Shown: positions 8,749 through 61,864 of the stretch, one piece after another
How positions within the stretch are numbered: the stretch's first letter is position 1
Layout: each line of letters starts with the position of its first letter
Assembly (NCBI GenBank): GCA_030426085.1
Contig: JAUHYW010000028.1
Span: 1-64,000 of the forward strand
Length of the DNA: 64,000 nucleotides
Direction: 5' to 3'
Origin: a bacterium
Lineage (GTDB): Bacteria > Myxococcota_A > Bradymonadia > UBA7976 > UBA1532
Position numbers and translations under genes: made by a program
Notes under the pieces: model-generated
The model's database searches: none
Told to the model about the DNA's origin: nothing
The model's input: the letters and a program-made list of their open reading frames with translations, nothing else

Positions 8749-8754
8749 TAGTCT
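8749..8754 (+). promoter_or_regulatory. -10 box TAGTCT, putative leaderless promoter
   Basis: TAGTCT ends 7 bases before the ATG at 8762, so transcription would begin at or next to the start codon. No Shine-Dalgarno sequence precedes this gene. No convincing -35 box is seen. Confidence 0.45.
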
Positions 8755-8761
8755 GTAGAGC

Positions 8762-9346
8762 ATGAGACTCTGGCGCCTCATCGCCATCCCCGCGCTGACG
8801 CTTCTGCCGTTCGGCGTCTCGGGCCTGTTGGGCATCCGCCATGTGCCCAGCGCCCTGCCGACGTGCCTCGAAGCGGTGCCGGCGGTCGACTTCGCCCGCT
8901 CGCCCATCGACGGGATCTGGCTGCGGCAGGTCGAGATCACCAACTGCGGCGGGGCGCCGGTGATGCTCGACAAGATCAGCATCGACGCTGCGGGGGACGA
9001 CGCGGGCTTCGCGCTGCTCGGGCCCCAGCCGGTGCTGGTCCCGGTCGACGCTCCGCTGACGCTCACCATCGGCTTCAGCCCCGAGCGCCCCGGCCGTCAC
9101 GCGGGCGCCCTGCGGATCGCGGCCGACGGCACGCCGCCGGTCGAGGTCGGCCTGCTCGGCGAGGGGGTGGCGCCCCGGGAGTGGCTGTCCGGGCCGGAGC
9201 CCGAGACCGAGCGGTGCAAGGCCGCGCTGCCCGGGGGCTTCGTGACCCGCGGCGCGTGCGGCGAGGCGAGCGATGTTCGCCTGCGGCCCGCCCGATGGCC
9301 GGCCGGGTTCACGACGCCCCAGCCCGAGACGCCTCCCGCGATCTGA
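8762..9346 (+). CDS. Secreted ASH/choice-of-anchor-type domain protein
   Basis: 194 residues. An N-terminal membrane segment (ALTLLPFGVSGLLGI) without a lipobox is followed by an Ig-like ASH (ASPM-SPD2-Hydin) domain: VEITNCGGAPVMLDKISI, then LTIGFSPERPGRHAGALRI and VEVGLLGEG, the three strands that define the fold. Such domains are common in extracytoplasmic proteins of this phylum and have structural or binding roles. The C-terminus holds two Cys residues and is otherwise unremarkable. The gene stands alone between recA and a convergent lipoprotein gene and appears to have its own leaderless promoter. Confidence 0.75.
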   Translation: MRLWRLIAIPALTLLPFGVSGLLGIRHVPSALPTCLEAVPAVDFARSPIDGIWLRQVEITNCGGAPVMLDKISIDAAGDDAGFALLGPQPVLVPVDAPLTLTIGFSPERPGRHAGALRIAADGTPPVEVGLLGEGVAPREWLSGPEPETERCKAALPGGFVTRGACGEASDVRLRPARWPAGFTTPQPETPPAI

Positions 9347-9417
9347 CCGGCCGTCGGGCTCGGCCGGGTCGCCGGCGCGGGCCGCAGCCCCTCGAGGGCC
9401 CCGGCCCGTGGCCGGCG

Positions 9418-11610
9418 TCAGTTCTTGGTGAGGTTCAGCCCGCCGGTGAAGGCATAGCTGACGTAGTCATCGTAGGCATACACCACGATACCGAACGGCG
9501 CCCGCCCCTGGATGGTGTGGGCTCCCGGCTCGACCTCGACATGACTGAACACATACGCCCCACCCCCGACGGGCGCCGCCGCGGCGATGTCGATGGGATC
9601 ACCGTCGAGCAGCAGCTCGTTGCCCACCGGGGTGACGATGGTCACGTAGTCGCTGAAGTAGGTGGCCGGCGTGAGGAAGGTGTAGTCCCGCCGGAACTGC
9701 CGGTCGGGCGGCACCAGGAAGATGGCCGGATCGCCGGCGTGGGTCCCCTGCCCCCGCAGCCCGGTGGAGTCCTGCCCCGAGATGATGCCCATCACGCTGA
9801 TCGGCGCCGTCGCGTCGAGCTGCACCGCACGCCGGGTCCCGAACTCGCAGAACTCGCCCGGCCCCAGCGCGATGGTGTCGCCGCCTTGCAGCAGGGCGCG
9901 GCAGTCGGGCACGCCCATGAAGCCGGGGGGCTGTGCCTGGAGGTCGGCGTATGGCAGCCCGAAACGCACGGTCGATGCCTGATCGCCGGCCATGATCTTC
10001 CAATAGGTCTGCTCGTCGGGCCAGTTGCGCCCCCGCTGGCGGGTCGGCACGAGCTGGAAGTTGCGGCCCCAGGTGTCGGTCGGGAAGAGCTGCTCCTGCA
10101 GGTGGTCGCAGGCGGCCAGATCCTGGGGATAGTTGGTGCAGACGTGGCTGCTGAACACGGCGATCGGCCGGTCGGACTCGATGAGGCTGCCCGACATGTC
10201 CGTCGCCTCGCCGAAGCCGCCCTGCCGCGCGTGCACCAGCATGACCTCGTGGGCGCCGAGCACGGCGTCGATCCGCTGCCCCACCTGCCGCACCCGCCCG
10301 GCCTGATCGGCGAAGGCCTGAACCCCGAGGGGCAGGTTGACCGCCACCTGGGTCCCGTCCTCGGGCGCGACGATGGCCATCACCGAGTTGCGGGCCCCGG
10401 CCGGGTTGAGGGGGTTGGGCAGTGTCGGGACCCCGAGCCACCGGTAGCGGGTGTCGAGCGCGCTGGTCGGCACCAGCAGGCTGGCGTCATTGCTGAAGCT
10501 GTAGTTACAGCAATAGGGGCTGAACTGGTACGCCACCACCGGGGCGTCGGCGACGACGCGCACCGCGTTGGCCGTGACCGAGGAGGCCGTCATCGGGGCC
10601 ATCCGGCGTTGCAGCAGGAGCGTCGCCAGCCCGCCGGGCGGGATCGAGATCGAGTCGGCGTTGTTCATGGCCTGCTCGACGATCATGCCGTCGGCGTCCT
10701 CGACCTCGGATTGCACGCGCTGAGGCATGGCGAGACCGGCCACCGGCGGGGGCACGGCGACGACCGTGCTCGCGATGAGCGGCATGACCCGCCCCTGCTC
10801 GTCGAAGATGCTGACCTCGGTCGGCCCGGCGCTGCTGACGTTGGCCACGACGATGCCCCACGGCGCGCTGGGCGTGCCCTCCTGGCTGCCCGGCTCGTAG
10901 GTCAGGTTGGGCAGGTCGACCGCCAGATACTCGCAGCCCTGGTTGCTGCGGCGCTGGGCGGCCGCGGCGCACTGCGGGCTCTGACAGCGCCCGGCGCCAC
11001 AGACGAGCCCCTCGGGGCACGGTCCGTCCGAGACCCACTGCCCGGGCTGGCAGGTCGCCGCTTCTCCCGTGGGCAGGCAGATCCGCTCCCCCGGGGTGCA
11101 GAGCGCGGGGTCGGGCACGCAGTCGATGCCCAAGCAGACCTGATCGTCGTTGCACGGCTGGATGGCCCACTGTCCGTCGACATTGCAGTATTGGCGCACC
11201 GGCTCGCCCTCGCTGGGGCAGCGGGTCTCCCCCGGCCGGCACTCGGCGGGCACCTCGCCGCCGGACCCGCCGTCGCCGCCCGCGCCGCCGTCCCCGCCCA
11301 TGCCGCCGGCGCCGCCATCGCCCCCCTGCCCACCGTCGCCGCCGACGCCGCCCTGCCCGATGTCCGGTCCGCTGTCGGCCGGGTCGACGGGGATGACACC
11401 GCCCGCGCCGCCCTCACCGAGTACGCCGCCGCCGGATCCGCCGCTCCCCATGCGGATCCCGCTGTCGTCGTCCGGATCGCCACCGCTTTCCGGTACACAG
11501 CCCAGGGCAGACAGCGCCACCACGATGAGCCCCACGAGCGGGCGGCTGCGTGGCCCGCTGATCGCGGGTCTGCGCCGAGGCGACGGGGAGCAGGCAGGAG
11601 AAGCGACCAT
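9418..11610 (-). CDS. IgGFc-binding-domain surface lipoprotein with Gly-Gly linker
   Basis: 730 residues. A signal peptide ends in a lipobox (LSALGC). Then comes a low-complexity linker of GGxGG/DGG repeats (about 52-117), a Cys-rich region of paired CxPGE/C modules (about 121-215), and a large beta-rich region related to the IgGFc-binding N-terminal domain (YEPGSQEGTPSAPWGIVVAN onward; FSSHVCTNYP; LTPATYFSDYVTIVTPVG). In this phylum such proteins are large cell-surface lipoproteins of unknown ligand; the name comes from mucin homology, not from tested IgG binding. AAGGAGGT lies about 7 bases before the ATG. Convergent with the ASH-domain gene. Confidence 0.85.
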   Translation of the reverse strand: MVASPACSPSPRRRPAISGPRSRPLVGLIVVALSALGCVPESGGDPDDDSGIRMGSGGSGGGVLGEGGAGGVIPVDPADSGPDIGQGGVGGDGGQGGDGGAGGMGGDGGAGGDGGSGGEVPAECRPGETRCPSEGEPVRQYCNVDGQWAIQPCNDDQVCLGIDCVPDPALCTPGERICLPTGEAATCQPGQWVSDGPCPEGLVCGAGRCQSPQCAAAAQRRSNQGCEYLAVDLPNLTYEPGSQEGTPSAPWGIVVANVSSAGPTEVSIFDEQGRVMPLIASTVVAVPPPVAGLAMPQRVQSEVEDADGMIVEQAMNNADSISIPPGGLATLLLQRRMAPMTASSVTANAVRVVADAPVVAYQFSPYCCNYSFSNDASLLVPTSALDTRYRWLGVPTLPNPLNPAGARNSVMAIVAPEDGTQVAVNLPLGVQAFADQAGRVRQVGQRIDAVLGAHEVMLVHARQGGFGEATDMSGSLIESDRPIAVFSSHVCTNYPQDLAACDHLQEQLFPTDTWGRNFQLVPTRQRGRNWPDEQTYWKIMAGDQASTVRFGLPYADLQAQPPGFMGVPDCRALLQGGDTIALGPGEFCEFGTRRAVQLDATAPISVMGIISGQDSTGLRGQGTHAGDPAIFLVPPDRQFRRDYTFLTPATYFSDYVTIVTPVGNELLLDGDPIDIAAAAPVGGGAYVFSHVEVEPGAHTIQGRAPFGIVVYAYDDYVSYAFTGGLNLTKN

Positions 11611-11847
11611 CGATGGACCTCCTTGCGGGCATGGGTCGGGCGCGCCGCGCGATGGGCGGTCTATTACAGCGGTCGAGGCGATGGCAAAGGAAAAATCGAC
11701 CGCCGAGTCGGCGTCGTGTCCGACCGCCGCCCCTGCGCCCGCAACACATGTGATGGGGTGCCCCGATCGATGACGTCCGCCGACCGGCGTGCCCGCGCCC
11801 GGCCGAGCCGCCCGCTCCGCTCGCGCGGGCTCAGCGCCGAAGGCCCG
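11611..11847. other. Intergenic region, no gene seen
   Basis: 237 bases between two same-strand genes. It holds the ribosome binding site for the IgGFc-type lipoprotein, and presumably its promoter. No convincing ORF, repeat or RNA is visible. Confidence 0.6.
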
Positions 11848-13362: not shown

Positions 13363-13461
13363 TCTTCGTCTCCGCGATGTCGGGGGTCGATGGTCCGGCA
13401 GCCTACCATCATCGGCCGGGGCCGAGCGCCTCGTCGTCGCCGACGGCCCGACGAGCCGGGT

Positions 13462-14976: not shown

Positions 14977-15069
14977 GCTCCCAAGGCTGCCACCCGGCGG
15001 TGGCGAATCGGGCTCAGGATAGCATCGAACCGGTCGCGGCCCCGAATCCGGCTCCGCGGGGGGCCGTCC

Positions 15070-15831: not shown

Positions 15832-15837
15832 TATCAT
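15832..15837 (+). promoter_or_regulatory. -10 box TATCAT, putative leaderless promoter
   Basis: TATCAT (5 of 6 to TATAAT) ends 6 bases before the ATG at 15844, placing the expected transcription start on the A of the start codon. No ribosome binding site is present. The best -35 at 17-bp spacing is TCGATT (3 of 6). Confidence 0.55.
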
Positions 15838-15843: not shown

Positions 15844-16794
15844 ATGACAGCATCTCCACTCGACGTCCTGGTGATCGGCGAGGCGATCGTCGACTTCGTG
15901 CCTCTGCACCGCGGCCCCCTGCGCGAGACGGAGGGCTTCGAATTGCACAGCGGCGGGGCGCCGGCCAACGTCGCGATCGGTGTCAGCCGCCTCGGCGGCC
16001 GGGCGGGGCTCGTCAGCGCGGTCGGGGACGACGAGTTCGGGGCCTTCCTGCTCGGGGCGCTCGCCCGGGAGGCGGTCGACACCCGCAGCGTGCATCGGGT
16101 CGAAGGCGCGCGCACCGCGCTGTGCTTCATCACCCTCGATCGGCACGGCGAGCGCAGCTTCCTGCACCGCGGCGGCGACCCCATCCTGCGGCTGGCCCCC
16201 GAGCACATCGACCCCGCGGCGGTCGCCGGCGCCCGGGTCGTCAAGTTCAGCGGGGGCCCTCTGCGCAGCGACTCCAGCGCGGCCGCCGTCGAGCGGCTGC
16301 TGGCGGGCTGCTCGGGCCTGATCGCGTGTGATCCGGGCGACTTCAAAGGCGCGTGGGCCGCCGCCGACGTGGTCGGCGGTCGGTTGGATCGAGCCCTGGG
16401 GCGGTGCCATGTCGTGAAGTGCTCGGCGCCCGAGGCGCTGGACCTCACCGGGGTCTCAGACCCGCTCGCCGCGGCCCGCCGGCTGGTCGAGCGCGGCGTG
16501 GAGCTGGCGGTGGTGACCCTGGGGCCGGAGGGCGCTGTCTACGCCCGGGCGCGGGACAGCGGGCACGTCCCGGCGCCGGCGGTCGAGGTGGTCGATACCA
16601 CCGGGGCCGGTGACGCGTTCATGGCGGCGCTGCTCCTATGCATCGCCCGCGACGAGATCCGCCCGGCGGCCATGGGCAACGAGCGGCTGCAATCCCACCT
16701 CGAGCGCGCGTGCGCGGTGGGCGCCGGGGCTGTGACTCGACGGGGCGCGATCGCCGGATTGCCACCGAGAGCAGGATACAGAGCGGGGACATGA
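15844..16794 (+). CDS. PfkB-family sugar kinase (fructokinase-like)
   Basis: 316 residues. PfkB signature 1 is GGAPANVAIGVSRLGG and signature 2 is DTTGAGDAFMAALL, whose Asp is the catalytic base. The opening VLVIGEAIVDFVP is typical of fructokinase/ribokinase members. It phosphorylates a sugar or nucleoside at a primary hydroxyl using ATP. The specificity (fructose is most likely from the FVP opening) is not certain. Its stop overlaps the next gene as ATGA, so it is translationally coupled to the YihY-type membrane protein. Confidence 0.9.
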   Translation: MTASPLDVLVIGEAIVDFVPLHRGPLRETEGFELHSGGAPANVAIGVSRLGGRAGLVSAVGDDEFGAFLLGALAREAVDTRSVHRVEGARTALCFITLDRHGERSFLHRGGDPILRLAPEHIDPAAVAGARVVKFSGGPLRSDSSAAAVERLLAGCSGLIACDPGDFKGAWAAADVVGGRLDRALGRCHVVKCSAPEALDLTGVSDPLAAARRLVERGVELAVVTLGPEGAVYARARDSGHVPAPAVEVVDTTGAGDAFMAALLLCIARDEIRPAAMGNERLQSHLERACAVGAGAVTRRGAIAGLPPRAGYRAGT

Positions 16795-23351: not shown

Positions 23352-23352
23352 C

Positions 23353-24489
23353 TCACCTCTCGTCGCGCATCGGCGGCGGGGCCCCGTCCCGGCGGGAGCC
23401 GCCGTACCACCAGTCGATCACATGCATCGCCGGCTTACCTCGGGGGGTGTAGCCGGTGTCTTCCAGGCCGCCCATGCCGAACCAGTTCCAGACGTAGAGC
23501 CCGGCCAGCAACGGCTCGGCGTGCCACGCCCGGAACATCGCCCGATAGCAGCGGAGCTGCATCTGGGGGTCGGGGCGGCCGACCGTCTCGTGATCCCAGG
23601 GCCGGGCCGCGGCGAACGGCGTGCTGGGATAGCCGATCTCGGTCAGGATGAACCGCTTCCCGGTGATGCGCGCCCAATGCCTCACCCGCTGGACGAACGA
23701 TTGCCAGCCTTCGAGCAGCGCCGCCTCGTCTGTCGGCGGCGGCGGCTCGCCCGGCCGGGCCGCCTCGACCAGCTTGTGGTAGCCGTTCAGCCCGGCCACG
23801 TCCAGGGCGTCCCAGAACTGCACCGGCTCGAAGTGATCCCAGTTGGCCGAATAGGTCAGCCGCCCCGGGAACAGCGACCGCACCTCGCCGATGAGGGCCC
23901 GCCATCGATCGACGTGGCGCTCCATCGACACCAGCTCGCTGCCGACGGCGTACAGCCCGACCCCCTCGGTGGCGCCGAGCCGGGCGTAGTGGCGCACGAA
24001 GTGGCGGTAGGCGGCCCACCACCGCTCGGGCTCGGCGGGCGCCAGCGTGCCCCGCCACTCCTTCGGGCGGCGCTGACGCACGTGCACGATGGGCATCAGG
24101 AAGACCCGCAGCCCCCGCTTCCGGGCGGCGCCGATGACCCAGCGCAGCGTCTCGTCGTCGGTCTCGGGGCCGGGGGCCAGGGTCGAGGCCCGCACGTCGA
24201 CCTGCTGCCAGCGGGTGACGAGCTGCACGTCGGTGACTCCGGCGAACGGCATCTCGTCCAGGAAGGCGCCGTAGCTCGCGCGGCGGTACTCGGCGTCGGC
24301 GCCCTTGATGAAGAGCCCCAGCGACGCGCCCCGGCGGAAGCCGGCCCCCCGGGCGCGCGGCGTCGGCAGGCCGGCGGTGGGGGCCGCGGCCCACGTCGGG
24401 CGGGGCCACCCGGTGACCGCCAGACCGCCGAGGCCCGCCAGGGCGCCCAGCGCCCGGCGGCGCGTCAGCGCCATGCGGGGGTCGAACAC
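23353..24489 (-). CDS. Tat-exported GH113/clan-A-like glycoside hydrolase
   Basis: 378 residues with a GTG start. The N-terminus carries a twin-arginine-type signal (LTRRRALGALAGLGGLAVTG), so the protein is exported folded. The body is a TIM barrel with GSELVSME (candidate acid/base Glu at the end of strand 4) and FILTEIGYPS (candidate nucleophile Glu on strand 7), as in GH113-like members of clan A, which include beta-mannanases. Trp-rich loops (YVWNWFGM, WWYGG) suit a sugar-binding cleft. The exact family and substrate are not certain. It is translated just ahead of xthA and appears to have a leaderless promoter. Confidence 0.75.
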   Translation of the reverse strand: MFDPRMALTRRRALGALAGLGGLAVTGWPRPTWAAAPTAGLPTPRARGAGFRRGASLGLFIKGADAEYRRASYGAFLDEMPFAGVTDVQLVTRWQQVDVRASTLAPGPETDDETLRWVIGAARKRGLRVFLMPIVHVRQRRPKEWRGTLAPAEPERWWAAYRHFVRHYARLGATEGVGLYAVGSELVSMERHVDRWRALIGEVRSLFPGRLTYSANWDHFEPVQFWDALDVAGLNGYHKLVEAARPGEPPPPTDEAALLEGWQSFVQRVRHWARITGKRFILTEIGYPSTPFAAARPWDHETVGRPDPQMQLRCYRAMFRAWHAEPLLAGLYVWNWFGMGGLEDTGYTPRGKPAMHVIDWWYGGSRRDGAPPPMRDER

Positions 24490-24495: not shown

Positions 24496-24501
24496 ACGCT
24501 A
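24496..24501 (-). promoter_or_regulatory. -10 box TAGCGT, putative leaderless promoter
   Basis: On the minus strand TAGCGT ends 6 bases before the GTG at 24489. The same hexamer with the same 6-base spacing occurs before lhr. No Shine-Dalgarno is present. Confidence 0.5.
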
Positions 24502-38691: not shown

Positions 38692-38760
38692 CGGTTCGAC
38701 GATGCACGAACCGGAGGCGGGCGTCCATGGGACGGGTGTTGAATCCGGGAGAGCGCGCCT

Positions 38761-38766
38761 CATACT
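38761..38766 (+). promoter_or_regulatory. -10-like CATACT, possible leaderless promoter
   Basis: CATACT (4 of 6 to TATAAT, with A2 and T6 kept) ends 6 bases before the ATG at 38773. No Shine-Dalgarno with usable spacing is present. It is weaker than the TAnnnT cases. Confidence 0.3.
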
Positions 38767-38772: not shown

Positions 38773-41361
38773 ATGCAGCCCCCTCCCCCGCGCGACCCGG
38801 GCGACGAGATCCGACGCTGGCTGGACGGCGACGGCCGCTGGCTGACCGTGGTCGGGCCGCCGGGCATCGGCAAGAGCCGGCTCGTGCAGCGGATCGTCGC
38901 CGAATCCAAGGCCGCCGTGACGGTCCTCGACCCCCCGCCCGAGCCCGAGTCGGTGACCGCGGTCGAGCAGCGGACCATCGCCGTGAGCTGCCTGCGTCAC
39001 CGGCACCCCGACGAGGCGGTGATCGAGGTCGGCCCGCTGCCCGGCGAGCGAGCGGCGCGGCTCTTCGTCGAGCGGGCCCGCCGGTTGGGGATCACGGCCG
39101 CCTTGCCCGACGCGGCGGTCGGCGCGCTGGTCGACCGCGTCGAGGGCCACCCCCAGGCGCTCGACCTGCTCGCGGGGCGGCTGACCGTGCTGACCCTCGA
39201 CGCGCTGCTCGACCGCCTCGACCAGCCGCCCGAAGCCGGCGTCGATCCGCTGATGCACGCCGCGCGCGCCCCGTGGGACGGCCTGCGGCGGCGCCTCGAT
39301 GTGGCTTGGAGCGCCCTCGATCCCCCGGCGCGGGACACCCTGCGTCACTGCGCGCTGTTCGCCGGCCCCTTCACCGCCGACGACGTCGCCCGGATCGGCG
39401 GCGGCGATCGGCTCGACGCGCTCCAGACGCTGCGCGATCACAGCCTGCTCACGCCGGGCCCCGCGCTGCCCGCGGTCATCCGGCGCTACGTCGCCGCCTG
39501 CCACGGGGCGCCCGATCCCGCGGCCCGCGCGCGTCATCGGCGCTGGGTCGCGCAGCGGGCCGCCGATCTGGCCGGTCGGGCGATCGAGCCGGACGCCATC
39601 CCGGCGATCGCCGCGTTCGAACCCGAGCTGCGGCGCGCTATCGATGCCATCGAGGCCCCTCCCTGGGATGGCTCGACTGGCATCCCGCCCGATGACATGA
39701 AGGGCTCCGCTGGCATCCCCCTCGATCGGGTAGCCGCCTGCGACGGGGCCCGAGCCCTCGCGGCGCTGTACGAGCACCGGGGCGACCCGCGGGCGGCCGA
39801 GACCGCGGCGCTCGCCGCCCGCCTCGCGCCGGGTGACGATCGGGCGCGGTGGGTGGCCGGTCACATCTGCGCCGCCCGGGCTGCGCGCCTCGCCGGCGAC
39901 ATCGACGGATCACGAGCCTGGCTCGCGGCGACCGCGGCCGACGTCGAGGGGCCCGATCCCCCGGTCGGCCCGCGCCTCGCCTCGCGCCACGCCTCGGAGC
40001 AGGCCGCGATCGAGATGCTGGCCGGCGATCTCGCGCGCGCGGCCGAGCTGGGGGAGTCCGCGCTGGCCCTCGCCCGCTGCTCGCGGGATCCCCTGCTCGA
40101 AGCCCGGGCGCTGGTGAACCTGGGCGGCACCCGGCACTGGCAGAATCGCCTCGACGACGCCGTCGCGGCCTACGCCGCCGCCCGCGCGATCAGCCGCCGC
40201 CTGGGCGCGACCCGGCTGGTCTGCATCAGCGCGGCCAACCTGTGCCTCGTCGACATCGTGCGGGGGCACCTGCCCGACGCCCGGGCCTCCGGCGAAGAGG
40301 CGCTGACGGCCTTCGTGGCCCTCGGGGACCGCCGGGGCGAGGGCACGGCCCGCAACAACCTGGGCATGATCGCGCTCGAGACCGATCGGCTCGACGAGGC
40401 GGCCGCGCACTTCGAAGCGGCCGCCCGCTGCCACGACGCCGTCGGCTTCCGCCAGCATGCGGCCTATGCCCGGCTGAACCTGGCCGAGATCGCCCTCGAG
40501 CGGGGCGACCGGACGCGGCACGACCGGCTGGTCGAGCGGCTGACGGTGCTCAACCACGGGCACCCCGGGGCCCGGGTGCCGATCCCCGGCGAGGGTCCGC
40601 TCAACGACCGGGCGCTGGCGCTGCATCTGCATCGCTCCCGGGCGCGCTCGGCGCTGGTGCGGGGCGAGCCCGACGCAGCCGAGGCCGCCTTGGAGCGGGG
40701 CCGGGCGGCGTCGAGCGGCGGCGGCCCGGCGCCGGAGCGGGCCGAGTTCGAGGCGCTGGCGGTCCGGGTCGCGCTGGCCCGGGGGGACGTGGACGCGGCC
40801 CGCGCCGCCTGGCGCCGGGCGCGGGACGCCGCCGAGGGCCACACCGCCGACCGTCTCGCTGCGCGGGTCGCGGTGCTGGGGGTGGCCGTGGGCGCGCGGA
40901 GCGGCGAGGACGCGGCGGTGATCCTCGCCGACGCGCTCGCCGCGATGCCGAGCTCGCTGGCCCTCCGTCGGACGCTGCGCGCCGTCTGGCCCCGCCTGCC
41001 CCGCGCCGCCCGCCGCGAAGCCCGGGCCCGCGGGGTGCCCCCGCCGTCGCTGTGCCTCGACCCGATGACCCACGAGGTCCGCACGCCCGACGGGCGCTGG
41101 ATCTCGCTGGACCGCCGGCGCCTGCTGTGGACGCTGCTCGGGGTGCTGTTCGATGCCGACGGGCCGCTGGATCCCGAGGCGGTCATCGCCGCGGTCTGGC
41201 CCGGCGAGCAGATCCAGCCGGACGCGGCCAGCAACCGCCTCTACAACGCGATCGCCCTGCTGCGAAGGGCGGGCCTCGGCGTGCGCCTGGAGCGGGTCGA
41301 CGCCGGCTATCGCCTCGACCCGGCGCTGCGCCGGGCCCGGCTCGATCTCGACGCGCCATAG
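38773..41361 (+). CDS. STAND-type ATPase/TPR regulator with C-terminal winged helix
   Basis: 862 residues. An N-terminal NTPase has Walker A GPPGIGKS (28-35), a Walker B-like acidic strand and a GHPQALDLLAGRL motif typical of NB-ARC/MalT-like STAND enzymes. A helical linker and TPR-like superhelix follow (about 300-760). The last 100 residues (EVRTPDGRWISLDRRRLLWTLL onward) form an OmpR-type winged helix (AAVWPGE, NRLYNAIALLRRAGL). The domain order is the reverse of SARP/AfsR regulators, which carry the winged helix first. It probably senses a ligand through the TPR region and binds DNA. A 33-base duplicated stretch (39670-39734) adds an imperfect GSTGIP/GSAGIP repeat. Divergent from the DUF2157 operon. 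Confidence 0.82.
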   Translation: MQPPPPRDPGDEIRRWLDGDGRWLTVVGPPGIGKSRLVQRIVAESKAAVTVLDPPPEPESVTAVEQRTIAVSCLRHRHPDEAVIEVGPLPGERAARLFVERARRLGITAALPDAAVGALVDRVEGHPQALDLLAGRLTVLTLDALLDRLDQPPEAGVDPLMHAARAPWDGLRRRLDVAWSALDPPARDTLRHCALFAGPFTADDVARIGGGDRLDALQTLRDHSLLTPGPALPAVIRRYVAACHGAPDPAARARHRRWVAQRAADLAGRAIEPDAIPAIAAFEPELRRAIDAIEAPPWDGSTGIPPDDMKGSAGIPLDRVAACDGARALAALYEHRGDPRAAETAALAARLAPGDDRARWVAGHICAARAARLAGDIDGSRAWLAATAADVEGPDPPVGPRLASRHASEQAAIEMLAGDLARAAELGESALALARCSRDPLLEARALVNLGGTRHWQNRLDDAVAAYAAARAISRRLGATRLVCISAANLCLVDIVRGHLPDARASGEEALTAFVALGDRRGEGTARNNLGMIALETDRLDEAAAHFEAAARCHDAVGFRQHAAYARLNLAEIALERGDRTRHDRLVERLTVLNHGHPGARVPIPGEGPLNDRALALHLHRSRARSALVRGEPDAAEAALERGRAASSGGGPAPERAEFEALAVRVALARGDVDAARAAWRRARDAAEGHTADRLAARVAVLGVAVGARSGEDAAVILADALAAMPSSLALRRTLRAVWPRLPRAARREARARGVPPPSLCLDPMTHEVRTPDGRWISLDRRRLLWTLLGVLFDADGPLDPEAVIAAVWPGEQIQPDAASNRLYNAIALLRRAGLGVRLERVDAGYRLDPALRRARLDLDAP

Positions 41362-41389
41362 GCGCTACGGGGCGTCGAGGTCGAGCCGG
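41337..41389. terminator. Bidirectional hairpin spanning both stop codons of a convergent pair
   Basis: Arms 41337-41357 and 41369-41389 pair over 21 positions with one mismatch (41355:41371) and one G-U pair, around an 11-base loop. Both TAG stops (41359-41361 plus, 41365-41367 minus) lie in the loop. Because the arms are the 3' coding ends, the two unrelated proteins end in the same residues, RLDLDAP. Confidence 0.85.
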
Positions 41390-42030
41390 AGCGCGTGCAC
41401 GATGACGCTGTGATCGGCCGCGTACCACCGCAGGTTGCGCGCCGGGCAGCCCAGCTCGGCGAGCAGCTCGCACAGCGCGCCGAGGTCGTGGGCCGCCAGA
41501 TCGGGCAGGTCGTTCAGCTCGGCCGGCGGCACCCGGCTGCGGTCGTTGACGTAGAGCACCAGCCCGGTCCGGGCCAGCCGCACCAGTCGGGTCAGCGCCC
41601 GGCGATCGCAGGCGGCCTGATCCGGCTGGCGCACCGCGAGCGAGCCCAGCGACATGACCCAGTCGAAGCCGGTGTGCCCCAGGTCGAGGGCGTCGAAGTC
41701 GGCGCAGACGAAGGTCGCGTCCGGATCGTCGCCATAGCGCCGGATCGCGGCCCGGTGGGGGCCTTCGAGCAGCTCCACGCCGACGTAGGCCCCCCGGAAG
41801 CCGCGGGCCCGCAGCTCGCCGAGCAGGTGCCCCTCCCCCGAGCCGACGTCGAGCACGCTGCGGGCGGCGGTCCAGTCGGTCAGCGGATCGGCGCAGGCGG
41901 CGGCCCAGGTCTGCCGGGCGGCGTGCAGGTCGGGCCAGCCGAGGGTGTTGCCCATGCGGTCGTGGTAGTCGGCGTAGAATGCGCGCACCCGCGCGGCGTG
42001 CGCCTCGGCAGAGTCGGCGGGATCGACCAT
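41365..42030 (-). CDS. Class I SAM-dependent methyltransferase
   Basis: 221 residues. Motif I is SVLDVGSGEGHLLGEL, motif II GVELLEG (acidic end of strand 2), then FVCADFDAL (strand 3) and FDWVMSLGSL (motif IV). This is a Rossmann-type methyltransferase; the substrate is unknown. Its last seven residues are identical to those of the convergent STAND protein because a terminator palindrome spans both 3' ends. A TAnnnT box 6 bases before the ATG suggests leaderless transcription. Confidence 0.85.
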   Translation of the reverse strand: MVDPADSAEAHAARVRAFYADYHDRMGNTLGWPDLHAARQTWAAACADPLTDWTAARSVLDVGSGEGHLLGELRARGFRGAYVGVELLEGPHRAAIRRYGDDPDATFVCADFDALDLGHTGFDWVMSLGSLAVRQPDQAACDRRALTRLVRLARTGLVLYVNDRSRVPPAELNDLPDLAAHDLGALCELLAELGCPARNLRWYAADHSVIVHALRLDLDAP

Positions 42031-42036: not shown

Positions 42037-42042
42037 ACCGTA
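42037..42042 (-). promoter_or_regulatory. -10 box TACGGT, putative leaderless promoter
   Basis: Minus-strand TACGGT, preceded by TGA, ends 6 bases before the ATG at 42030. No Shine-Dalgarno is present. A weak -35 (TTCAAG, 3 of 6) lies 18 bases upstream. Confidence 0.5.
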
Positions 42043-44266: not shown

Positions 44267-46244
44267 GCAGCCGGATGCGGGCCTGACGGGCGTCGTACGA
44301 GCGGGACAGCGCGGCCCGGCGCGGCCCGTAGCCCTCGGGGGTGTAGCGCCCGCGGCGGCGGCTGTCGATGGCCTCCACCTTCACCCGCCCCGGCTCGGCG
44401 GTCAGCGTCAGGCGGGTGACGAAGGCGTCGCTCTCGGCGGTGAAGGTCTGCGGCCCCTCGGCGAAGGTGTAGCCCTCGGGCAGAGTCAGCTCCAGCGTCT
44501 CGTGGAAGACATCGTTGGTCGGCAGCACCATCTCCCGGGTCCGCTTCCCGCGCTTGGGCACGCTGTAGCGCCCCGACCCGTGCATCAGCGTGAGCGGCAC
44601 GATCAGCTCGTCCCCGTCGACGGTGGCGTAGCCCGGCACCACGAAGCGCAGCGTGCGGGTGCAGCGCCCCGCCGCCCGATCGCAGGTCGGCGTCGGCGCC
44701 TCGAGCAGCCGCGCCCGCCGGTCGATCCGGGCCAGCCGATCCTCGGGCGCCTTCTCCGCCTCGTCCCCCGACCACCGGCGGATCTCGCGCGCGAACCACG
44801 CCGCCCGCATGCCTTCGTAGGTCTCTTCGAGCGTCACCGTGGCCGCCCCGTCGGCGTCGAGCTGCACCGCGAGGCGGTTGTGGATGCGATCGGGCGTCGC
44901 CGACTTGCCCCGGGCCACCACCCGCTTCGCCTTCACCTCGGGCCGGTCGAGCATCGCGTCGGTGTACTCGATGACGAACATCTGCGCGCCGTTGCTGTAG
45001 TCGGACAGCTCGCCCGGCGCGCAGTGCTCGCAGCCCGGATCGAGCCACATCGGCCCCGCGAGGCCCGGCTGATCGGGCAGGTAGAGCAGCATGTGATTCA
45101 GCGGCCAGGCGTCGGGGTAGTCGGGGTTGATCCGCCCGGTGGCCGGCCGCACCCCGAAGGCGTATTGCACCTCGAGCCCCGCGTCGCGCAGCAGCCGCCC
45201 CACGAGCACCGCCTTCTCGTACTGGTTGGCCGCCTGCTCGGCGAGCACCCGGGACAGCGGCTCGACCGCGCCGAAGAAGCTGCTGGTGAGCCCGTCGAAG
45301 GCCGCCTTCTCCCGGGCGACCGACAGGGCGGCCTTCACCCGACACATCGTCTGCATGATGCCTTCGGGGCAGTCGGGCAGCGGGGGCGGGTCGTAGCCTT
45401 CGTAGAGCGTGTTCGGGTCGCCGTAGAGCCGCCGGGCCCGCCAGTAGAGGATGTCGCCCCAGGTGCGGCTGACCGAGCGGCGCCACGACTTGAACACGTA
45501 GGCCTTGACCTTGAAGAGCAGCCGGGGCCAGGCATCGTCATTCGGGGCCCACTTCTCGTCGGGCGGCGGCCCGATGTCGGACGACGTCCACGTCAGGTGG
45601 CGCAGCGCCCCGTCCTCGACCTTGCGCACCTTGTCCCGGGTGTTGGTGATCCGCACCGAGTAGCGCACGATCGAGTTGACCGTGATCCGCATCCGGGCCT
45701 CGACGATGGGCAGGCCGGGCATGGCGGTCAGCCGGCGATAGTCATCCGAGAACCAGTCGATGGGATAGTCCGACTCGATGGACCAGGTGTACTCGATGGC
45801 CCCGCCCACCTCGGCCCCGGGGATCGAGGCGACGAAGACCCGGGCCACGTCCTCCTCGTCCTCCTTGACCGCCGCGCTCTTCAGCGCCGACGCGTCGATG
45901 CTGCGCACGACCCCGTCGGGCGAGATGCTGCGGGCCTTGAAGTCCCCGATCTCCCGGTTCTTGCCCAGGGTGATGCGCAGATCGGCCAGATCGAGCGCGT
46001 CGGGGCTGCGCAGGCGGATGATGCGGTGCACCCGCCACTCGGCGTACGAGGTGTCGTGGCTCGAGATGTCGATCAGCTCGGTGTCGGCGAGCACGATGAC
46101 CGCCTTGGCGTCGGGCCAGCGGTCGTCGTCGGCGGGGGTGGCCGTCGCCGGCCCCCAGCGGACCTCGACGTGCGGGCGGCAGCCGAGCGCCGCCCCGGCG
46201 AGCGCGAAGCCGAGTAGCAGCATGCGGGCGGCCGCGCGGCTCAT
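44253..46244 (-). CDS. DUF3857-type lipoprotein with inactive transglutaminase core
   Basis: 663 residues. Signal peptide with lipobox ALGC. A DUF3857-like N-terminal beta domain is followed by a transglutaminase-like core and a C-terminal beta domain. In the core the block that should read G-D-C-K-D-x-A is ANQYEKAVLVGRLLRDAGLEV: the catalytic Cys is replaced by Gln. The His (PLNHMLLYL) and Asp (MWLDPG) remain. It is therefore probably a binding protein or pseudo-enzyme. The start overlaps the stop of the active paralogue gene (ATGA), so the two are made together. Confidence 0.82.
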   Translation of the reverse strand: MSRAAARMLLLGFALAGAALGCRPHVEVRWGPATATPADDDRWPDAKAVIVLADTELIDISSHDTSYAEWRVHRIIRLRSPDALDLADLRITLGKNREIGDFKARSISPDGVVRSIDASALKSAAVKEDEEDVARVFVASIPGAEVGGAIEYTWSIESDYPIDWFSDDYRRLTAMPGLPIVEARMRITVNSIVRYSVRITNTRDKVRKVEDGALRHLTWTSSDIGPPPDEKWAPNDDAWPRLLFKVKAYVFKSWRRSVSRTWGDILYWRARRLYGDPNTLYEGYDPPPLPDCPEGIMQTMCRVKAALSVAREKAAFDGLTSSFFGAVEPLSRVLAEQAANQYEKAVLVGRLLRDAGLEVQYAFGVRPATGRINPDYPDAWPLNHMLLYLPDQPGLAGPMWLDPGCEHCAPGELSDYSNGAQMFVIEYTDAMLDRPEVKAKRVVARGKSATPDRIHNRLAVQLDADGAATVTLEETYEGMRAAWFAREIRRWSGDEAEKAPEDRLARIDRRARLLEAPTPTCDRAAGRCTRTLRFVVPGYATVDGDELIVPLTLMHGSGRYSVPKRGKRTREMVLPTNDVFHETLELTLPEGYTFAEGPQTFTAESDAFVTRLTLTAEPGRVKVEAIDSRRRGRYTPEGYGPRRAALSRSYDARQARIRLRRDR

Positions 46245-48286
46245 CGGTCGCCCTCCAGACGCGCCGTCGGCCGACCGACCGGAGCCTTCGGCGTCGGACT
46301 CCGAGGCGCCGCCGGCGGGGGTTCGGCCGGGCTCTCGGGCACCCCCGGCGTCACCGGCCGCAGGACCACCGCCCGGGCGTCGGCCCGCAGGATCGCGTCC
46401 GCGAAGGCCCGGTAGGCCTCGACCTGATCGGCGCCGATCCACGGCTGGGTCCAGGTGAGCTGCCGGTCGAGCTCGACGCCGCCCTCGGCCTGCCGCCAGA
46501 CGAGCCGATAAGTGGCGAACGGCGCCTCGATCTCGACCGGCGCTGGCAGCTCGCCCGGGCGGCGCTCGGGCGGCAGGGCCAGCGCGACCCGGTGGTGCCG
46601 CACCCGGGGCACGCCGAGCAGGATCGGCCGGGTGCGCGGCCCGGCCTCGATGCGGCGCACGCCGGGCGAGAAGAAGGTGTCGGGGGTCAGGCTCCACACC
46701 TGCCCCGCCGGCCCGAAGCGCTCGTCGCGGCGCACGGCGACCCGGGCTTCGAGCGGGACCCCGGCCGTCGTCGGCACGACGCCCGCCGTGCGCTCGATGG
46801 CGTTGACGATGATGTCGTGCACCCCGAGGCGATCGTCGAACTTCTTCCTTCGCTCTTTGCCCCGCTCGTTGAGCAGGTGGTGGCGCAGGGGGTGGGCCTT
46901 CGCCCCGACCGCGCTGACGTCGATGGCGCCCTTCGCCCAGCCGTCGGCGCCGACCGCGAGCCGCAGCGTGACCTCGAGCCGGTTCGCCTCGGGCGGGTCG
47001 ACCGGGACGCGCTCCACCGGATCGCCGTCGGCGCTCAGCGGCAGCACGTCGGCCCCCTGGAGCGCGAACGGGACCTCGCCGAAGGCGGTGCCGGTGTGCG
47101 TCGGATCGGCGAGCACCGAGCGATCGGGCAGATCGACGAAGACCACCTGATGGTTGGCGTTGCCGGCGATGGTGGGCAGGCCGTAGGGCCAGGGCCAGCC
47201 GCCGTGGGCCCAGACCGTCACCTGCCGGCTGGGGATGCCGGCGACGGCGAGCATCGTGCCCAGCAGCGACGCTTGATCTTTGCAGTCGCCGAAGCCCACA
47301 TCGAGGACCTCTTGCGAGGCGTGGGGGATCCAGCCGCCCATGCCGAGCTGCACCGACACGTAGCGCACCCGATCCCGCACATGCGCATACAGCCGGGCGG
47401 CGCGCGCGGCGGGATCGGCCTCCACATCGGCCAGGATCGCGTCGACCCGGGCCCGGATGGCGTCATCGGGCACCAGCCGGGGGGCCTGCATCGCGTGCAG
47501 GCGGGCCGAGATGGCGGCCGGCTCGGCGGGGCCGTCGGTCGTCTGACCCCCGATGATCCACCGGGTGAGCTGCACCGCGACCATCGGCGCCATCTGGAAC
47601 GGAGCCGGCGCGTGGCGCTCGCGGACCAGCGCGGGGGTCCCTTCGCGGCGCCACACCAGCGTCCGGGCCCCGGTGGGCGCGGCCTCGAGCGCAGGCGCCC
47701 ACTCGATGTCGCGCCCCGCCTCGCGGGCCAGATGGCGGACGTCCCAGCCCGGCGGCAGGTGCACCGTCAGGCGGCCCTCGACCAGCGGGTGCCAGCCGGC
47801 GAAGACCTGCCGCGGGCTCCACAGCCGCATGTCGCGGTAGCGCACGGTCGAGACCGTCTCGACGACGGCGCCCGGCGAGAGCTGGGGGCGGTGGGCGAGG
47901 TAGCGCGAGTCGGAGAAGAGGGTGATGCCGCCGAAGGCCGGCAGATCGAGGGCGTCGCCCCGGTCGAAGGTCGACTCTTCGCCGTCGGGTGCGATGACCC
48001 GGCCTCGGAAGTCCACCAGATCGCGCAGCCCGGCCTGATAGCCGACGCCGACCTGCACGTCCTCGATGCCGCGCGGCGTGCGATACCAGATCCGACGGCG
48101 CTCGGTCACCTCGGCGACGGGCTCATCGGCGACCGCGGTGAAGCGCACGGTCACGTCGTCGAGCAGGACGACCCGGTCGGCGCCGCCCCACTCGCCTTCG
48201 GGCAGCGAGTCGCGATCGAACGCGGGCCACGACGCGCCGCAGCCCGCTGCCAGCCCGGCCAGCAATACGGAGAGGAGGTGTCTCAT
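46241..48286 (-). CDS. DUF3857 transglutaminase-like lipoprotein, active-site intact
   Basis: 681 residues. Lipobox AAGC, DUF3857 beta domain (about 30-250), then a transglutaminase core with Cys335 in VGFGDCKDQASLL, His in NANHQVVFVDL and Asp in LADPTHTG, and a C-terminal DUF3858-like region. Enzymes of this fold act as peptidases or cross-linkers in the periplasm; the substrate is unknown. The C-terminus is Pro-rich. No Shine-Dalgarno is seen and a TAnnnT box lies 6 bases upstream of the ATG. The downstream overlapping gene is a Cys-less paralogue. Confidence 0.88.
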   Translation of the reverse strand: MRHLLSVLLAGLAAGCGASWPAFDRDSLPEGEWGGADRVVLLDDVTVRFTAVADEPVAEVTERRRIWYRTPRGIEDVQVGVGYQAGLRDLVDFRGRVIAPDGEESTFDRGDALDLPAFGGITLFSDSRYLAHRPQLSPGAVVETVSTVRYRDMRLWSPRQVFAGWHPLVEGRLTVHLPPGWDVRHLAREAGRDIEWAPALEAAPTGARTLVWRREGTPALVRERHAPAPFQMAPMVAVQLTRWIIGGQTTDGPAEPAAISARLHAMQAPRLVPDDAIRARVDAILADVEADPAARAARLYAHVRDRVRYVSVQLGMGGWIPHASQEVLDVGFGDCKDQASLLGTMLAVAGIPSRQVTVWAHGGWPWPYGLPTIAGNANHQVVFVDLPDRSVLADPTHTGTAFGEVPFALQGADVLPLSADGDPVERVPVDPPEANRLEVTLRLAVGADGWAKGAIDVSAVGAKAHPLRHHLLNERGKERRKKFDDRLGVHDIIVNAIERTAGVVPTTAGVPLEARVAVRRDERFGPAGQVWSLTPDTFFSPGVRRIEAGPRTRPILLGVPRVRHHRVALALPPERRPGELPAPVEIEAPFATYRLVWRQAEGGVELDRQLTWTQPWIGADQVEAYRAFADAILRADARAVVLRPVTPGVPESPAEPPPAAPRSPTPKAPVGRPTARLEGDR

Positions 48287-48292: not shown

Positions 48293-48321
48293 AGCGTATA
48301 GCGTCGGGACGCGGCGGCCAA
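48293..48321 (-). promoter_or_regulatory. Putative leaderless promoter TTGGCC-17-TACGCT
   Basis: Minus strand: TTGGCC (48321-48316), a 17-base spacer, then TACGCT (48298-48293), ending 6 bases before the ATG at 48286. No ribosome binding site precedes the gene. Confidence 0.5.
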
Positions 48322-55363: not shown

Positions 55364-55482
55364 GGGCATCTCCGGTGGGTGGACGGGGGAACTTATCACG
55401 GCGGCATCATCGGAGCATCCCGCTTGCGGCGGCGCGGCCGATGGTGTGCATTCGTCGAAGCCATCCACCGCGGAGCGCGCCC

Positions 55483-56799: not shown

Positions 56800-56815
56800 G
56801 TCGGGGGCTCACCGG
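56792..56815. terminator. Hairpin spanning both stop codons of the P450/caspase pair
   Basis: CCGG-C-TGAG and CTCACCGG pair over 8 bp with one bulged C around a 7-base loop. The P450 TGA is in the left arm and the complement of the caspase gene's TGA is in the right arm. Confidence 0.55.
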
Positions 56816-58671: not shown

Positions 58672-59180
58672 GGGCAGGGGCCGACCTCGACGTCCAGCGG
58701 GAGCTGCTGCCCGTCGGGCCCCTTCGGGCCGTCCCAGTACAGCATCAGCGCGCCGCTCGCGCCCTTGAAGTCGGCCGGCTGCGAGAGGGCGCCGAGCTTC
58801 TCGGCGTCGATCCGCTGGACCGTGCGGGCCCCGATCTCGAGCTTGGCCGGGTCGAGCTGGAAGACCTGCCCCCCGCCGGTGGCCGGCCCGATGCGGACCA
58901 GCGCCCGGTCGTAGCGCAGACCTCGCAGATCGGTGGACAGCTTCAGCTCGATCCACAGGCCGGCGACCGCGCCGCCCGCGTCGCAGGCCCGCACCGCGCA
59001 CGAGCCGCAGCCGTGCTCACCGGGCTTCGCGTCGTCGAACGCCGCCGGGGGCCGGTCTTCGGCGGGCACCGGCTCGGGCTGGGGCGCGGCGCCGCAGCCG
59101 AGCGCGGCCCAGGTGACGAGCAGGGCCGCGGCGAGGGCGGGCAGCGGCAGGGGTCGCGCGCGATCAGGCATGTCGCTCAT
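58668..59180 (-). CDS. Lipoprotein of unknown family, partner of the caspase gene
   Basis: 170 residues. Lipobox ALGC after a clear signal peptide; then a short Cys-rich stretch (HGCGSCAVRAC) and an Ig- or lipocalin-like beta domain (VAGLWIELKLSTDLRGLRYDRALVRIG to the end). I do not recognise the family. GGAG is 7 bases before the ATG. Its stop overlaps the caspase start (GTGA), and hemF ends 29 bases upstream, so the caspase should be made with this protein. It may anchor or inhibit the caspase; this is inference. Confidence 0.75.
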   Translation of the reverse strand: MSDMPDRARPLPLPALAAALLVTWAALGCGAAPQPEPVPAEDRPPAAFDDAKPGEHGCGSCAVRACDAGGAVAGLWIELKLSTDLRGLRYDRALVRIGPATGGGQVFQLDPAKLEIGARTVQRIDAEKLGALSQPADFKGASGALMLYWDGPKGPDGQQLPLDVEVGPCP

Positions 59181-59209
59181 GGCGGGTCTCCGAAGATGGG
59201 GCGGTGGGT

Positions 59210-60262
<1,053 letters not shown>

Positions 60263-60269
60263 GGCGCAC

Positions 60270-60275
60270 AATCTA
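60270..60275 (-). promoter_or_regulatory. -10 box TAGATT, putative leaderless promoter
   Basis: Minus-strand TAGATT (4 of 6 to TATAAT) ends 7 bases before the ATG at 60262. No Shine-Dalgarno is present. Confidence 0.45.
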
Positions 60276-60355
60276 GCGCAGGACGGCCGGCGACGCGACG
60301 GGCTCGAATCCGACACCCGTTGAGTTCCGGTCGCCCGATCGGGCATGACAGTGCC

Positions 60356-61855
60356 ATGACCTCCGACGACGAGCAGCGCGTGCAGCTCGCCCTGCGGTTG
60401 ATCCACAGCGCAGAGCAGAGCCTCGATCGGCCCGATCCCGAGGCGCCCCTGCCCCGGGCGCTGGTCCTCGGCGTGCAAGCGGTGGCGAAGTGTCGGGCGC
60501 TCGATCCGGCGGTGCCGGCCCACACCCGCATGCTGATCCGCGCCCTGGGGGCGCAGGCCGAGGCCGCGTTCGAGGCTCAGCGCGCCGATCTGGCCCGGTC
60601 AGCGCTCTTCGAGGCGGCGGCGCTGCTCGGCGCGCCGGTCGGTGAGCCGCCGGGCCCGGCCGCGCCCCATCCCCTCGCCCGCCACATCGGCGATCTGCTC
60701 GAGACCCTGGCCGACGAGCACCTCGCCCGCGATCGCCGCCCGCTGCCCGCCGGCCCCGGCCCGCTGGCGGTCCTCCGCGCGGCGGTGCACCTGCTGCGCC
60801 CCGAGCCCGACGGCCCCCCCGCCGCGCGGCAGGCCTACGCCTTCGCCGCGTGGCGGCTGGCCGATCTGGTCGACGAGCGCCACGGCCCGCAGGCGGCGGT
60901 CCCGGCCACGATCGCGGCGGTGGGCGCCCTGCGGGGTATGCCCGACGCCGGGCTGAACGCCCAGCCGCTGGCCGAGGCGCTGATCGAGCTGGCCATCCGC
61001 TGCGAGCACGATCCGCCCCGGGCGGTGGACGCCGCCGACGAGGCGGTGGCGCTCTACCGGGCGGCCTTCGGCGCCGAGCCCGAGGGCTACCGCTTCGATC
61101 TGGCGCGGGCGCTGTTCGTGGCGAGCGTCTATCACGGGGGCCTCGGCCGGCGGCCGGTGGCCCTCGGCACGATCGAGGAGGCGGTCGAGCTGCTGCGGGG
61201 GGCGCCGCCCGACGATCGCCACGCGGCCCGGCCGCTGCTGGCCCACTGCCTGCACAACCTGGGGCTGTGGACCCAGCCCATCCGCCCCCGGGCGGCCGAG
61301 CCGGCGCTGCGGGAGGCGGTGGCGCTCTACCGGGCCCTCGACGCCGAGCAGCCGGGCAGCCACGCCGACGACATCGCCACCAGCCTCGCCAGCCTGGCCA
61401 GCTTGCTCGCGGTGCACCGCCACCCCGAAGAGGCCGCCCGGCTCAACGACGAGGCGCTCGATCGTCTGCGGACGCTGGCCGAGGCCGGGGTCGATCACAT
61501 GGACGGGGCGCTGGCCGACGCGCTGGTCATATCGGGCAGCCTGGCCCACGCCCGGGGCGAGCCGGAGATCGCGGCCGCGCTGTGGGACGAGGGCATCGAG
61601 CGCTTGTGGCCGGCCTACGAGGCGGCGCCGGAAGAGAGGGGCTACACCACGGCCCTCCTGCTCGCCTGCCGCCTGCGCCTCGCCCGCCGCGAGCCGCGGC
61701 TCGGGCGCGATCTGAGCCCGCTGATCGAGCAGTTCAACCGCCTGCAATGGCCCGACGGCCCGGGGCTGGTGCGCCGGGGACGGTGGACGCTGGACGGCCC
61801 GAGCGACGCCCCGGCGGCCGAGAGCCCGCTTGCGACGCACACTGAACACGCGTAG
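60356..61855 (+). CDS. TPR-repeat protein, cytosolic
   Basis: 499 residues with no signal peptide. It is built from Ala/Leu-rich helical pairs of TPR type (for example ALRGMPDAGLNAQPLAEALIELA, SLASLASLLAVHRHPEEAARLNDEALDRLRTL). No catalytic motif is seen. The end lacks homology beyond the repeats. Its TAG stop codon (61853-61855) forms part of the -10 hexamer of the downstream lhr promoter, so the two are adjacent but probably separately transcribed. The function is unknown. Confidence 0.75.
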   Translation: MTSDDEQRVQLALRLIHSAEQSLDRPDPEAPLPRALVLGVQAVAKCRALDPAVPAHTRMLIRALGAQAEAAFEAQRADLARSALFEAAALLGAPVGEPPGPAAPHPLARHIGDLLETLADEHLARDRRPLPAGPGPLAVLRAAVHLLRPEPDGPPAARQAYAFAAWRLADLVDERHGPQAAVPATIAAVGALRGMPDAGLNAQPLAEALIELAIRCEHDPPRAVDAADEAVALYRAAFGAEPEGYRFDLARALFVASVYHGGLGRRPVALGTIEEAVELLRGAPPDDRHAARPLLAHCLHNLGLWTQPIRPRAAEPALREAVALYRALDAEQPGSHADDIATSLASLASLLAVHRHPEEAARLNDEALDRLRTLAEAGVDHMDGALADALVISGSLAHARGEPEIAAALWDEGIERLWPAYEAAPEERGYTTALLLACRLRLARREPRLGRDLSPLIEQFNRLQWPDGPGLVRRGRWTLDGPSDAPAAESPLATHTEHA

Positions 61856-61858
61856 CGT
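61830..61858 (+). promoter_or_regulatory. Putative leaderless promoter TTGCGA-17-TAGCGT upstream of lhr
   Basis: TTGCGA (61830-61835, 4 of 6 to TTGACA), a 17-base spacer and TAGCGT (61853-61858), with six bases before the ATG at 61865. It is inside the end of the TPR gene. No Shine-Dalgarno is present. Confidence 0.55.
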
Positions 61859-61864
61859 ATCCCC

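What the first reader, a model, noticed from the sequence alone, without database searches (positions are those of the whole stretch)
8749..61864. Leaderless-promoter signature before many SD-less genes
Seven genes without a ribosome binding site have TAnnnT ending 6-7 bases before the start codon: 8762 (TAGTCT), 15844 (TATCAT), 24489 (TAGCGT, GTG start), 42030 (TACGGT), 48286 (TACGCT), 60262 (TAGATT) and 61865 (TAGCGT). An eighth at 38773 has CATACT. With roughly 30% A+T, TAnnnT at a fixed position has about a 0.3% chance, so seven in under 50 genes is far more than expected. Leaderless mRNAs of this layout are well known in Actinobacteria and Deinococcus; I am not aware of it as a described feature of Myxococcota.
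Basis: partly seen in the sequence, partly recalled or inferred. Interest (0 to 1): 0.75.

Follow-up and report, generated by a model that had tools for sequence, protein, structure and literature searches.

The report
Leaderless-gene promoters in a probable myxobacterium
Several genes in this window have the promoter's last element sitting six or seven bases before the start codon, so their messenger RNAs very probably begin at the start codon itself, an arrangement already known in many bacteria and used here by about one gene in twenty.

Summary
In detail: all seven TAnnnT sites and the CATACT site are where stated. In 823 motif-blind starts from 1.2 Mb of the same genome, TAnnnT lies 6, 7, 8 or 9 bases before the start in 19, 7, 4 and 4 genes, against 11 in all at gaps 0-5 and 10-19. 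The T-A-T triplet is specific, and a TTG -35 element, not used for selection, appears 17 bp upstream. In a same-genus genome 16 of 23 orthologues examined keep the motif at a start, against 0 of 20 Shine-Dalgarno controls; four window genes tested apart all keep it. Best reading: sigma-70-type promoters making leaderless mRNAs, in about 4-5% of genes; the window is locally rich in them. Of 282 genomes of the phylum, 161 show the excess and none the reverse, but only 2 of 41 in the rest of the own class. The kind is well known, and Zheng et al. 2011 already list leaderless genes in 8 of 33 delta-Proteobacteria, so the claimed novelty is weak. No transcription start has been mapped.

The parts
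8749..8754 (+). -10 element TAGTCT, 7 bases before ATG 8762 (gene 8762-9346, no Pfam match)
   Evidence: orthologue in G207 (L215) has TAGTCT-N6-ATG
15832..15837 (+). -10 element TATCAT, 6 bases before ATG 15844 (PfkB sugar kinase, 15844-16794)
   Evidence: G207 TATCAT-N6-ATG and G259 TATCGT-N6-ATG
24496..24501 (-). -10 element TAGCGT, 6 bases before GTG 24489 (GH113, 23353-24489)
   Evidence: no orthologue passed the cut-offs
38761..38766 (+). CATACT, 6 bases before ATG 38773 (AAA/TPR protein, 38773-41361); weaker candidate, orthologues not examined
   Evidence: TTGAAT 16 bp upstream at 38739-38744; CANNNT shows only a small genome-wide excess of 3.8 genes
42037..42042 (-). -10 element TACGGT, 6 bases before ATG 42030 (methyltransferase, 41365-42030)
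   Evidence: orthologue in G207 (L226) shows no TAnnnT at a start (a miss)
48293..48298 (-). -10 element TACGCT, 6 bases before ATG 48286 (DUF3857/transglutaminase, 46241-48286)
   Evidence: G207 orthologue TAGACT-N6-ATG; not seen in G103, G037, G062
48316..48321 (-). -35-like TTGGCC, 17 bp before the -10 element of 48286
   Evidence: read; TTG at spacer 17 is the genome-wide pattern
60270..60275 (-). -10 element TAGATT, 7 bases before ATG 60262 (HemF, 59210-60262)
   Evidence: TAnnnT at gap 6-7 also in G207, G240 and G037, not in G259 or G062
61853..61858 (+). -10 element TAGCGT, 6 bases before ATG 61865 (Lhr-type helicase, runs past 64000)
   Evidence: G207 TATCGT-N6-ATG; not in G103
61830..61835 (+). 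-35-like TTGCGA, 17 bp before the -10 element of 61865, inside the end of the upstream gene
   Evidence: read

Best explanation
The TAnnnT boxes are the -10 elements of ordinary sigma-70/sigma-A-type promoters (TTGnnn, 17 bp, TAnnnT) placed so that transcription starts on the first base of the start codon. The mRNAs have no 5' leader and no Shine-Dalgarno sequence, and are probably translated by ribosomes that bind directly at the 5' AUG or GUG. In the same genome more than half of the genes carry a Shine-Dalgarno 4-mer; leaderless genes are a minority of about 4-5%. Shown: motif, position, specificity, -35 element, conservation. Inferred: the transcription start site and the mode of ribosome binding.
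For: (1) Gap profile: 19, 7, 4, 4 genes at gaps 6-9; 3 in all at gaps 0-5 and 8 in all at gaps 10-19, of 823 genes. (2) Of eight A/T triplets in the frame XYnnnZ, TAnnnT has 26 genes at gaps 6-7; the next highest have 8. (3) TTG at spacer 17 in 7 of 36 sites, expected 0.17; spacer 16-18, 8 of 36, P 4e-8. (4) A Shine-Dalgarno 4-mer is in 2 of 34 genes with TAnnnT at gaps 6-9, 34 of 42 at gaps 25-33, 19 of 37 at 34-45 and 18 of 28 at 46-59, with only 11 genes at the twelve gaps 10-21 (all genes 452 of 823): the box sits either at the start codon or far enough upstream for a leader with a ribosome site. (5) Orthologues in G207: TAnnnT at gap 6-9 of a start within 12 codons in 16 of 23, against 0 of 20 Shine-Dalgarno controls, of which 20 of 20 keep a Shine-Dalgarno 4-mer; four window genes tested apart, 4 of 4. 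(6) Sites avoid tight same-strand junctions: 30 of 556 genes with free upstream space, 4 of 262 without, P 0.008. (7) ATG in 31 of 34 against 551 of 789, P 0.006. (8) Whole genome: TAnnnT-N6-ATG 236, N15 control 96.
Against: No transcript data. The lack of Shine-Dalgarno at these genes is partly forced, because a T at that position displaces it: the other triplets ending in T at the same gaps have it in 1 of 17 genes. An unsupervised motif search on genes without Shine-Dalgarno did not return TAnnnT. Seven of 23 orthologues do not show it (two of these have gap 10), and 4 of the 23 have a Shine-Dalgarno 4-mer at a nearby start. In more distant members of the family several orthologues of the four window genes lack it. 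The -35 signal is not significant in small samples of three other sets, and in G085 14 of 28 sites precede GTG.
Confidence: 0.9

Rival explanations
1. The boxes are -10 elements, but transcription starts a few bases upstream or downstream, giving very short leaders rather than truly leaderless mRNAs, or the assumed start codon is not the one used.
For: Gaps 8 and 9 occur (8 of 34); two orthologues have gap 10. Start choice is uncertain: 12 of 339 genes without either signal at the called start have one at a nearby alternative start, against 4, 0, 1 and 2 at four control gap sets.
Against: The peak is at gap 6, the spacing from a -10 box to the start base known from E. coli (recalled), and gaps 10-21 hold only 11 genes.
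Confidence: 0.08
2. An A+T-rich, unstructured patch before the start codon that aids ribosome or S1 binding, not a promoter.
For: The box itself brings A+T into a G+C-rich upstream region.
Against: Only T-A-T in the exact TAnnnT frame is strongly enriched, not its permutations; a -35 element lies 17 bp upstream.
Confidence: 0.01
3. Chance, through selective reading of one window.
For: The window is the richest of 14 tiles.
Against: The rest of the sample shows the same signal, 21 of 775 at gaps 6-7, and orthologues keep it.
Confidence: 0.01

Closest known systems
TA-led (leaderless) genes of Zheng et al. 2011 (PMC3160421; outline with abstract, passages and section 7 seen)
   Same: TAnnnT about 10 bp upstream of the start in high-GC genomes, genes not Shine-Dalgarno-led; delta-Proteobacteria included, 8 of 33 genomes, 5.7-20.6% of genes.
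   Different: A search of its main text found no 'myxoc', 'Sorangium' or 'Anaeromyxobacter'; here gene-level position, the -35 element, conservation in a same-genus genome and the distribution over 282 genomes of the phylum are added.
-10 motif adjacent to ORFs in Deinococcus-Thermus (PMC12340547; passages and section 11 seen)
   Same: TANNNT directly before the ORF acting as a promoter for leaderless mRNA, shown there by experiment.
   Different: About 30% of ORFs there, about 4-5% here; no experiment exists here.
Leaderless mRNAs of Mycobacterium and Streptomyces (only titles and abstract openings of PMC4633059, PMC3898074, PMC8780764 seen, in the listings)
   Same: High-GC bacteria mixing Shine-Dalgarno and leaderless genes (recalled).
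   Different: Different phylum; start sites mapped there, not here.

Membership tests
Bacterial leaderless genes with a -10 box at the start codon | TAnnnT-type -10 element at a fixed gap of about 6-9 bases before the start codon | tested here: met
Bacterial leaderless genes with a -10 box at the start codon | No Shine-Dalgarno sequence | tested here: met
   2 of 34 have a 4-mer, others 450 of 789; partly forced by the motif's position
Bacterial leaderless genes with a -10 box at the start codon | Gene is first in its transcription unit | tested here: inconclusive
   A tendency: 30 of 556 with free upstream space against 4 of 262 tight same-strand, P 0.008; 4 exceptions, one of them the window's 61865. 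Transcription units themselves were not determined.
Bacterial leaderless genes with a -10 box at the start codon | Mapped transcription start at the start codon | not testable with these tools
   no transcript data
Bacterial leaderless genes with a -10 box at the start codon | Translation of the leaderless mRNA | not testable with these tools
   needs ribosome profiling or a reporter
Sigma-70/sigma-A promoters | -35 TTG element about 17 bp from the -10 box | tested here: met
   7 of 36 at spacer 17, expected 0.17; at spacer 16-18 in three other sets 1 of 14, 2 of 28 and 0 of 13, not significant

The most novel reading that the evidence does not exclude
Leaderless expression is widespread across this phylum, nearly absent from most of one class (2 of 41 genomes outside the window's order), and present again in those genera of a single family within that class (the window's own) whose background of chance matches is low, so that close relatives differ sharply in how genes start.
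Probability: 0.5. Interest if true: 0.5.

Novelty: new member of a known kind. Interest (0 to 1): 0.33.

Why it matters
If true, about one gene in twenty in this genome, and 9-19% in three of the four other sampled sets that show the peak, may be given a wrong start or score by gene finders that expect a Shine-Dalgarno sequence. Promoters of such genes could be read straight from the start codon, and the group offers close relatives with and without the mode for studying how leaderless initiation is gained or lost.

Tried and rejected
Gene calling: the first version of the caller missed the PfkB gene; it was revised, without use of the motif. The two versions agree on the peak (18, 7, 3, 4 of 816; 19, 7, 4, 4 of 823).

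Unsupervised motif search (ZOOPS): on all genes it found Shine-Dalgarno; on genes without it, it returned a CGATCG-like word with the fraction at its upper limit, not TAnnnT. Degenerate -10 boxes: no excess for GANNNT, TCNNNT, TGNNNT, TTNNNT, AANNNT, TANNNC, and 0.5 gene for TANNNG; small for CANNNT (3.8 genes) and TANNNA (4.2), so the count was not widened.

Shine-Dalgarno exclusion as independent proof: dropped, because it is partly mechanical. Functional bias: lipobox in 9 of 34 against 96 of 789, P 0.03, and P 0.07 against Shine-Dalgarno genes alone; not claimed. ATG preference as a general mark: holds here, not in G085.

Selection of rows: the ortholog test used 31 of 34 motif genes; two (60262, 61865) were tested apart, and one was dropped by the script's filter for genes of at least 300 bases. 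It examined 23 of 31 motif genes and 20 of 31 controls; the others gave no hit passing the identity, length and position filters. Of the places found, only the best 30 became loci: 30 of 34 and 30 of 104. The controls were drawn at random from 297 Shine-Dalgarno genes with free upstream space; those examined are on the whole better conserved than the motif genes. In one search the sets of named loci were my choice: L065-L070 (L081 and L144, also named Deltaproteobacteria and Myxococcales, were left out), 18 loci of Acidobacteria and 12 of Pseudomonadota; Nitrospirae and others were not used. The forward and reverse counts were added by hand.

Papers: three were fetched and seen in parts only. 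Searches for a description in Myxococcota. No listed title or abstract opening treats leaderless genes of Myxococcota, but several listings were capped (15 of 47, 25 of 175, 15 of 733 and 15 of 95 papers), and subscription papers are mostly not held.

Full report
What is in the sequence. The genes behind them match, by Pfam, a sugar kinase (15844), GH113 hydrolase (24489), methyltransferase (42030), transglutaminase/DUF3857 protein (48286), coproporphyrinogen III oxidase HemF (60262), Lhr-type helicase (61865) and an AAA/TPR protein (38773); 8762 has no match.

Is it more than chance? I fetched 1.2 Mb of the 10.1-Mb genome and called genes by codon usage, with no motif used in choosing starts. 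TAnnnT lies at gap 6-9 before 34 of 823 starts (19, 7, 4, 4), against 3 in all at gaps 0-5 and 8 in all at gaps 10-19. The composition expectation is 0.24% per gap, the measured rate at gaps 10-24 is 0.15%, and 26 of 823 at gaps 6-7 has P about 1e-13 by composition. Among the eight A/T triplets T-A-T has 26 genes at gaps 6-7, the others at most 8. Of 339 genes with neither signal at the called start, 12 have the motif at a nearby alternative start, against 4, 0, 1 and 2 at four control gap sets. The excess of 29 genes at called starts plus about 10 of these makes the genome-wide share about 4-5%. In the whole genome TAnnnT-N6-ATG occurs 236 times and the N15-spaced control 96 times. The window is the richest of 14 tiles.

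Is it a promoter? Aligning 36 sites (34 called plus 15844 and 48286) on TAnnnT shows T, T, G at the three positions expected for a -35 element 17 bp upstream, although nothing there was selected for: TTG at spacer 17 in 7 of 36, expected 0.17. TAnnnT boxes fall in two groups: at gaps 6-9 (Shine-Dalgarno 4-mer in 2 of 34 genes) and from gap 25 up (34 of 42 at gaps 25-33, 19 of 37 at 34-45, 18 of 28 at 46-59), with 11 genes at the twelve gaps 10-21. This is what promoters would give if they make either no leader or one long enough to hold a ribosome site. The Shine-Dalgarno lack at gap 6-9 is itself partly forced, since T at that place displaces it.

Is it kept by selection? In the same-genus genome G207 the orthologues of four window genes (HemF, Lhr, PfkB, DUF3857) all carry TAnnnT 6 or 7 bases before a start, with changed middle bases in three of the four. 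Further off in the family HemF keeps it in G240 and G037 but not in G259 or G062, PfkB in G259 but not in G222 or G103, and Lhr (G103) and DUF3857 (G103, G037, G062) do not show it. Of 31 further motif genes, 23 orthologues in G207 were examined and 16 keep TAnnnT at gap 6-9 of a start within 12 codons; two of the seven misses have gap 10, and 4 of the 23 have a Shine-Dalgarno 4-mer nearby. Of 31 Shine-Dalgarno controls, 20 were examined under the same rule; 0 have TAnnnT there and 20 keep Shine-Dalgarno. In the window, 8762 keeps it, 42030 does not, 24489 gave no usable orthologue, and 38773 was not examined.

How it most likely works. Sigma-70-type RNA polymerase binds TTGnnn-17-TAnnnT and starts on the first base of the start codon; the leaderless mRNA is taken up by the ribosome at its 5' codon. 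The promoter is strongly supported; the start base and the translation are inferred.

How far does it reach? In 282 genomes of the phylum the gap-6 pattern exceeds the gap-15 control at one-sided P<1e-3 in 161, and the reverse holds in none. By kinship: own genome and same genus 2 of 2; other members of the own family 6 of 11; own order outside the family 0 of 3; own class outside the order 2 of 41; phylum outside the class 151 of 225. Within the own family the four members with many chance matches show none (G072, G150, G222, G264). The median excess per Mb is about 16 in the three bins with fewest chance matches, 11 in the next and 3.5 in the last; the density of chance matches stands in for A+T content, so base composition and lineage are not fully separated. 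Gene-level samples, genes with TAnnnT at gap 6-9 and the number expected from other gaps: G085 28 of 148 (2.6), G149 14 of 161 (1.1), G003 4 of 70 (0.0), G086 from the own class 1 of 198 (3.4), six named loci L065-L070, four of them with myxococcal names, 13 of 85 (2.0). Acidobacteriota loci (22 of 221, 8.0) and Pseudomonadota loci (7 of 90, 1.7) also show a peak, so the feature is not special to this phylum. Against the reversed-pattern control, the genomes with myxococcal names give 331/239 (L065), 431/276 (L067), 409/177 (L068), 389/139 (L070) and 80/67 (L144); most of the other named ones lie near 1, with exceptions such as L066 (480/174), L069 (431/159), L081 (1192/916), L095 (120/84), L101 (1410/1162) and L107 (141/88).

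What is known. Zheng et al. 2011 (PMC3160421) classify genes as SD-led or TA-led over 953 bacterial genomes, give TAnnnT as the form in high-GC groups, and list delta-Proteobacteria with 8 of 33 genomes, mean 15.8%, range 5.7-20.6%. That these eight are mainly myxobacteria is my guess; I saw no species list. PMC12340547 shows by experiment that the same motif is a promoter in Deinococcus-Thermus and scans other phyla in supplementary figures I did not see. PMC5397173 discusses such signals by phylum (passages only). In my searches no listed title or abstract opening treats leaderless genes of Myxococcota; several listings were capped.

Verdict. Real, well explained, and of a known kind: a new, well-supported member with an uneven distribution among close relatives. 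Not shown: any transcription start, any translation, and the organism's name.

Noticed in passing
L068 and L070, just upstream of the Lhr helicase gene: A dyad TACTG-N10-CAGTA (L068) or TACTG-N10-CAGTG (L070), like a LexA/SOS box, before the Lhr-type helicase; own genome and G207 share ACACTGAACA upstream of the same gene. The SOS link is recalled, not tested.
   Followed up: no
L148 (G259 HemF orthologue): TAGACT lies 27 bases before a GTG with GACGGAG between, an apparent switch from leaderless to leadered in one gene.
   Followed up: no
G000:C5:205290-205351 and G000:C11:116240-116349: Divergent gene pairs 60 and 108 bp apart with a leaderless-type box on both sides, so two promoters share a very short gap.
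   Followed up: no
window 8005-8550 and G000:C37:49563-50108: A stretch 82% identical to this one lies elsewhere in the genome.
   Followed up: no
G000:C2:2818-4291 and G000:C37:54274-54343: Five near-identical TACCTTC...AGATG matches look like internal repeats and may add a few false counts to the whole-genome pattern.
   Followed up: no
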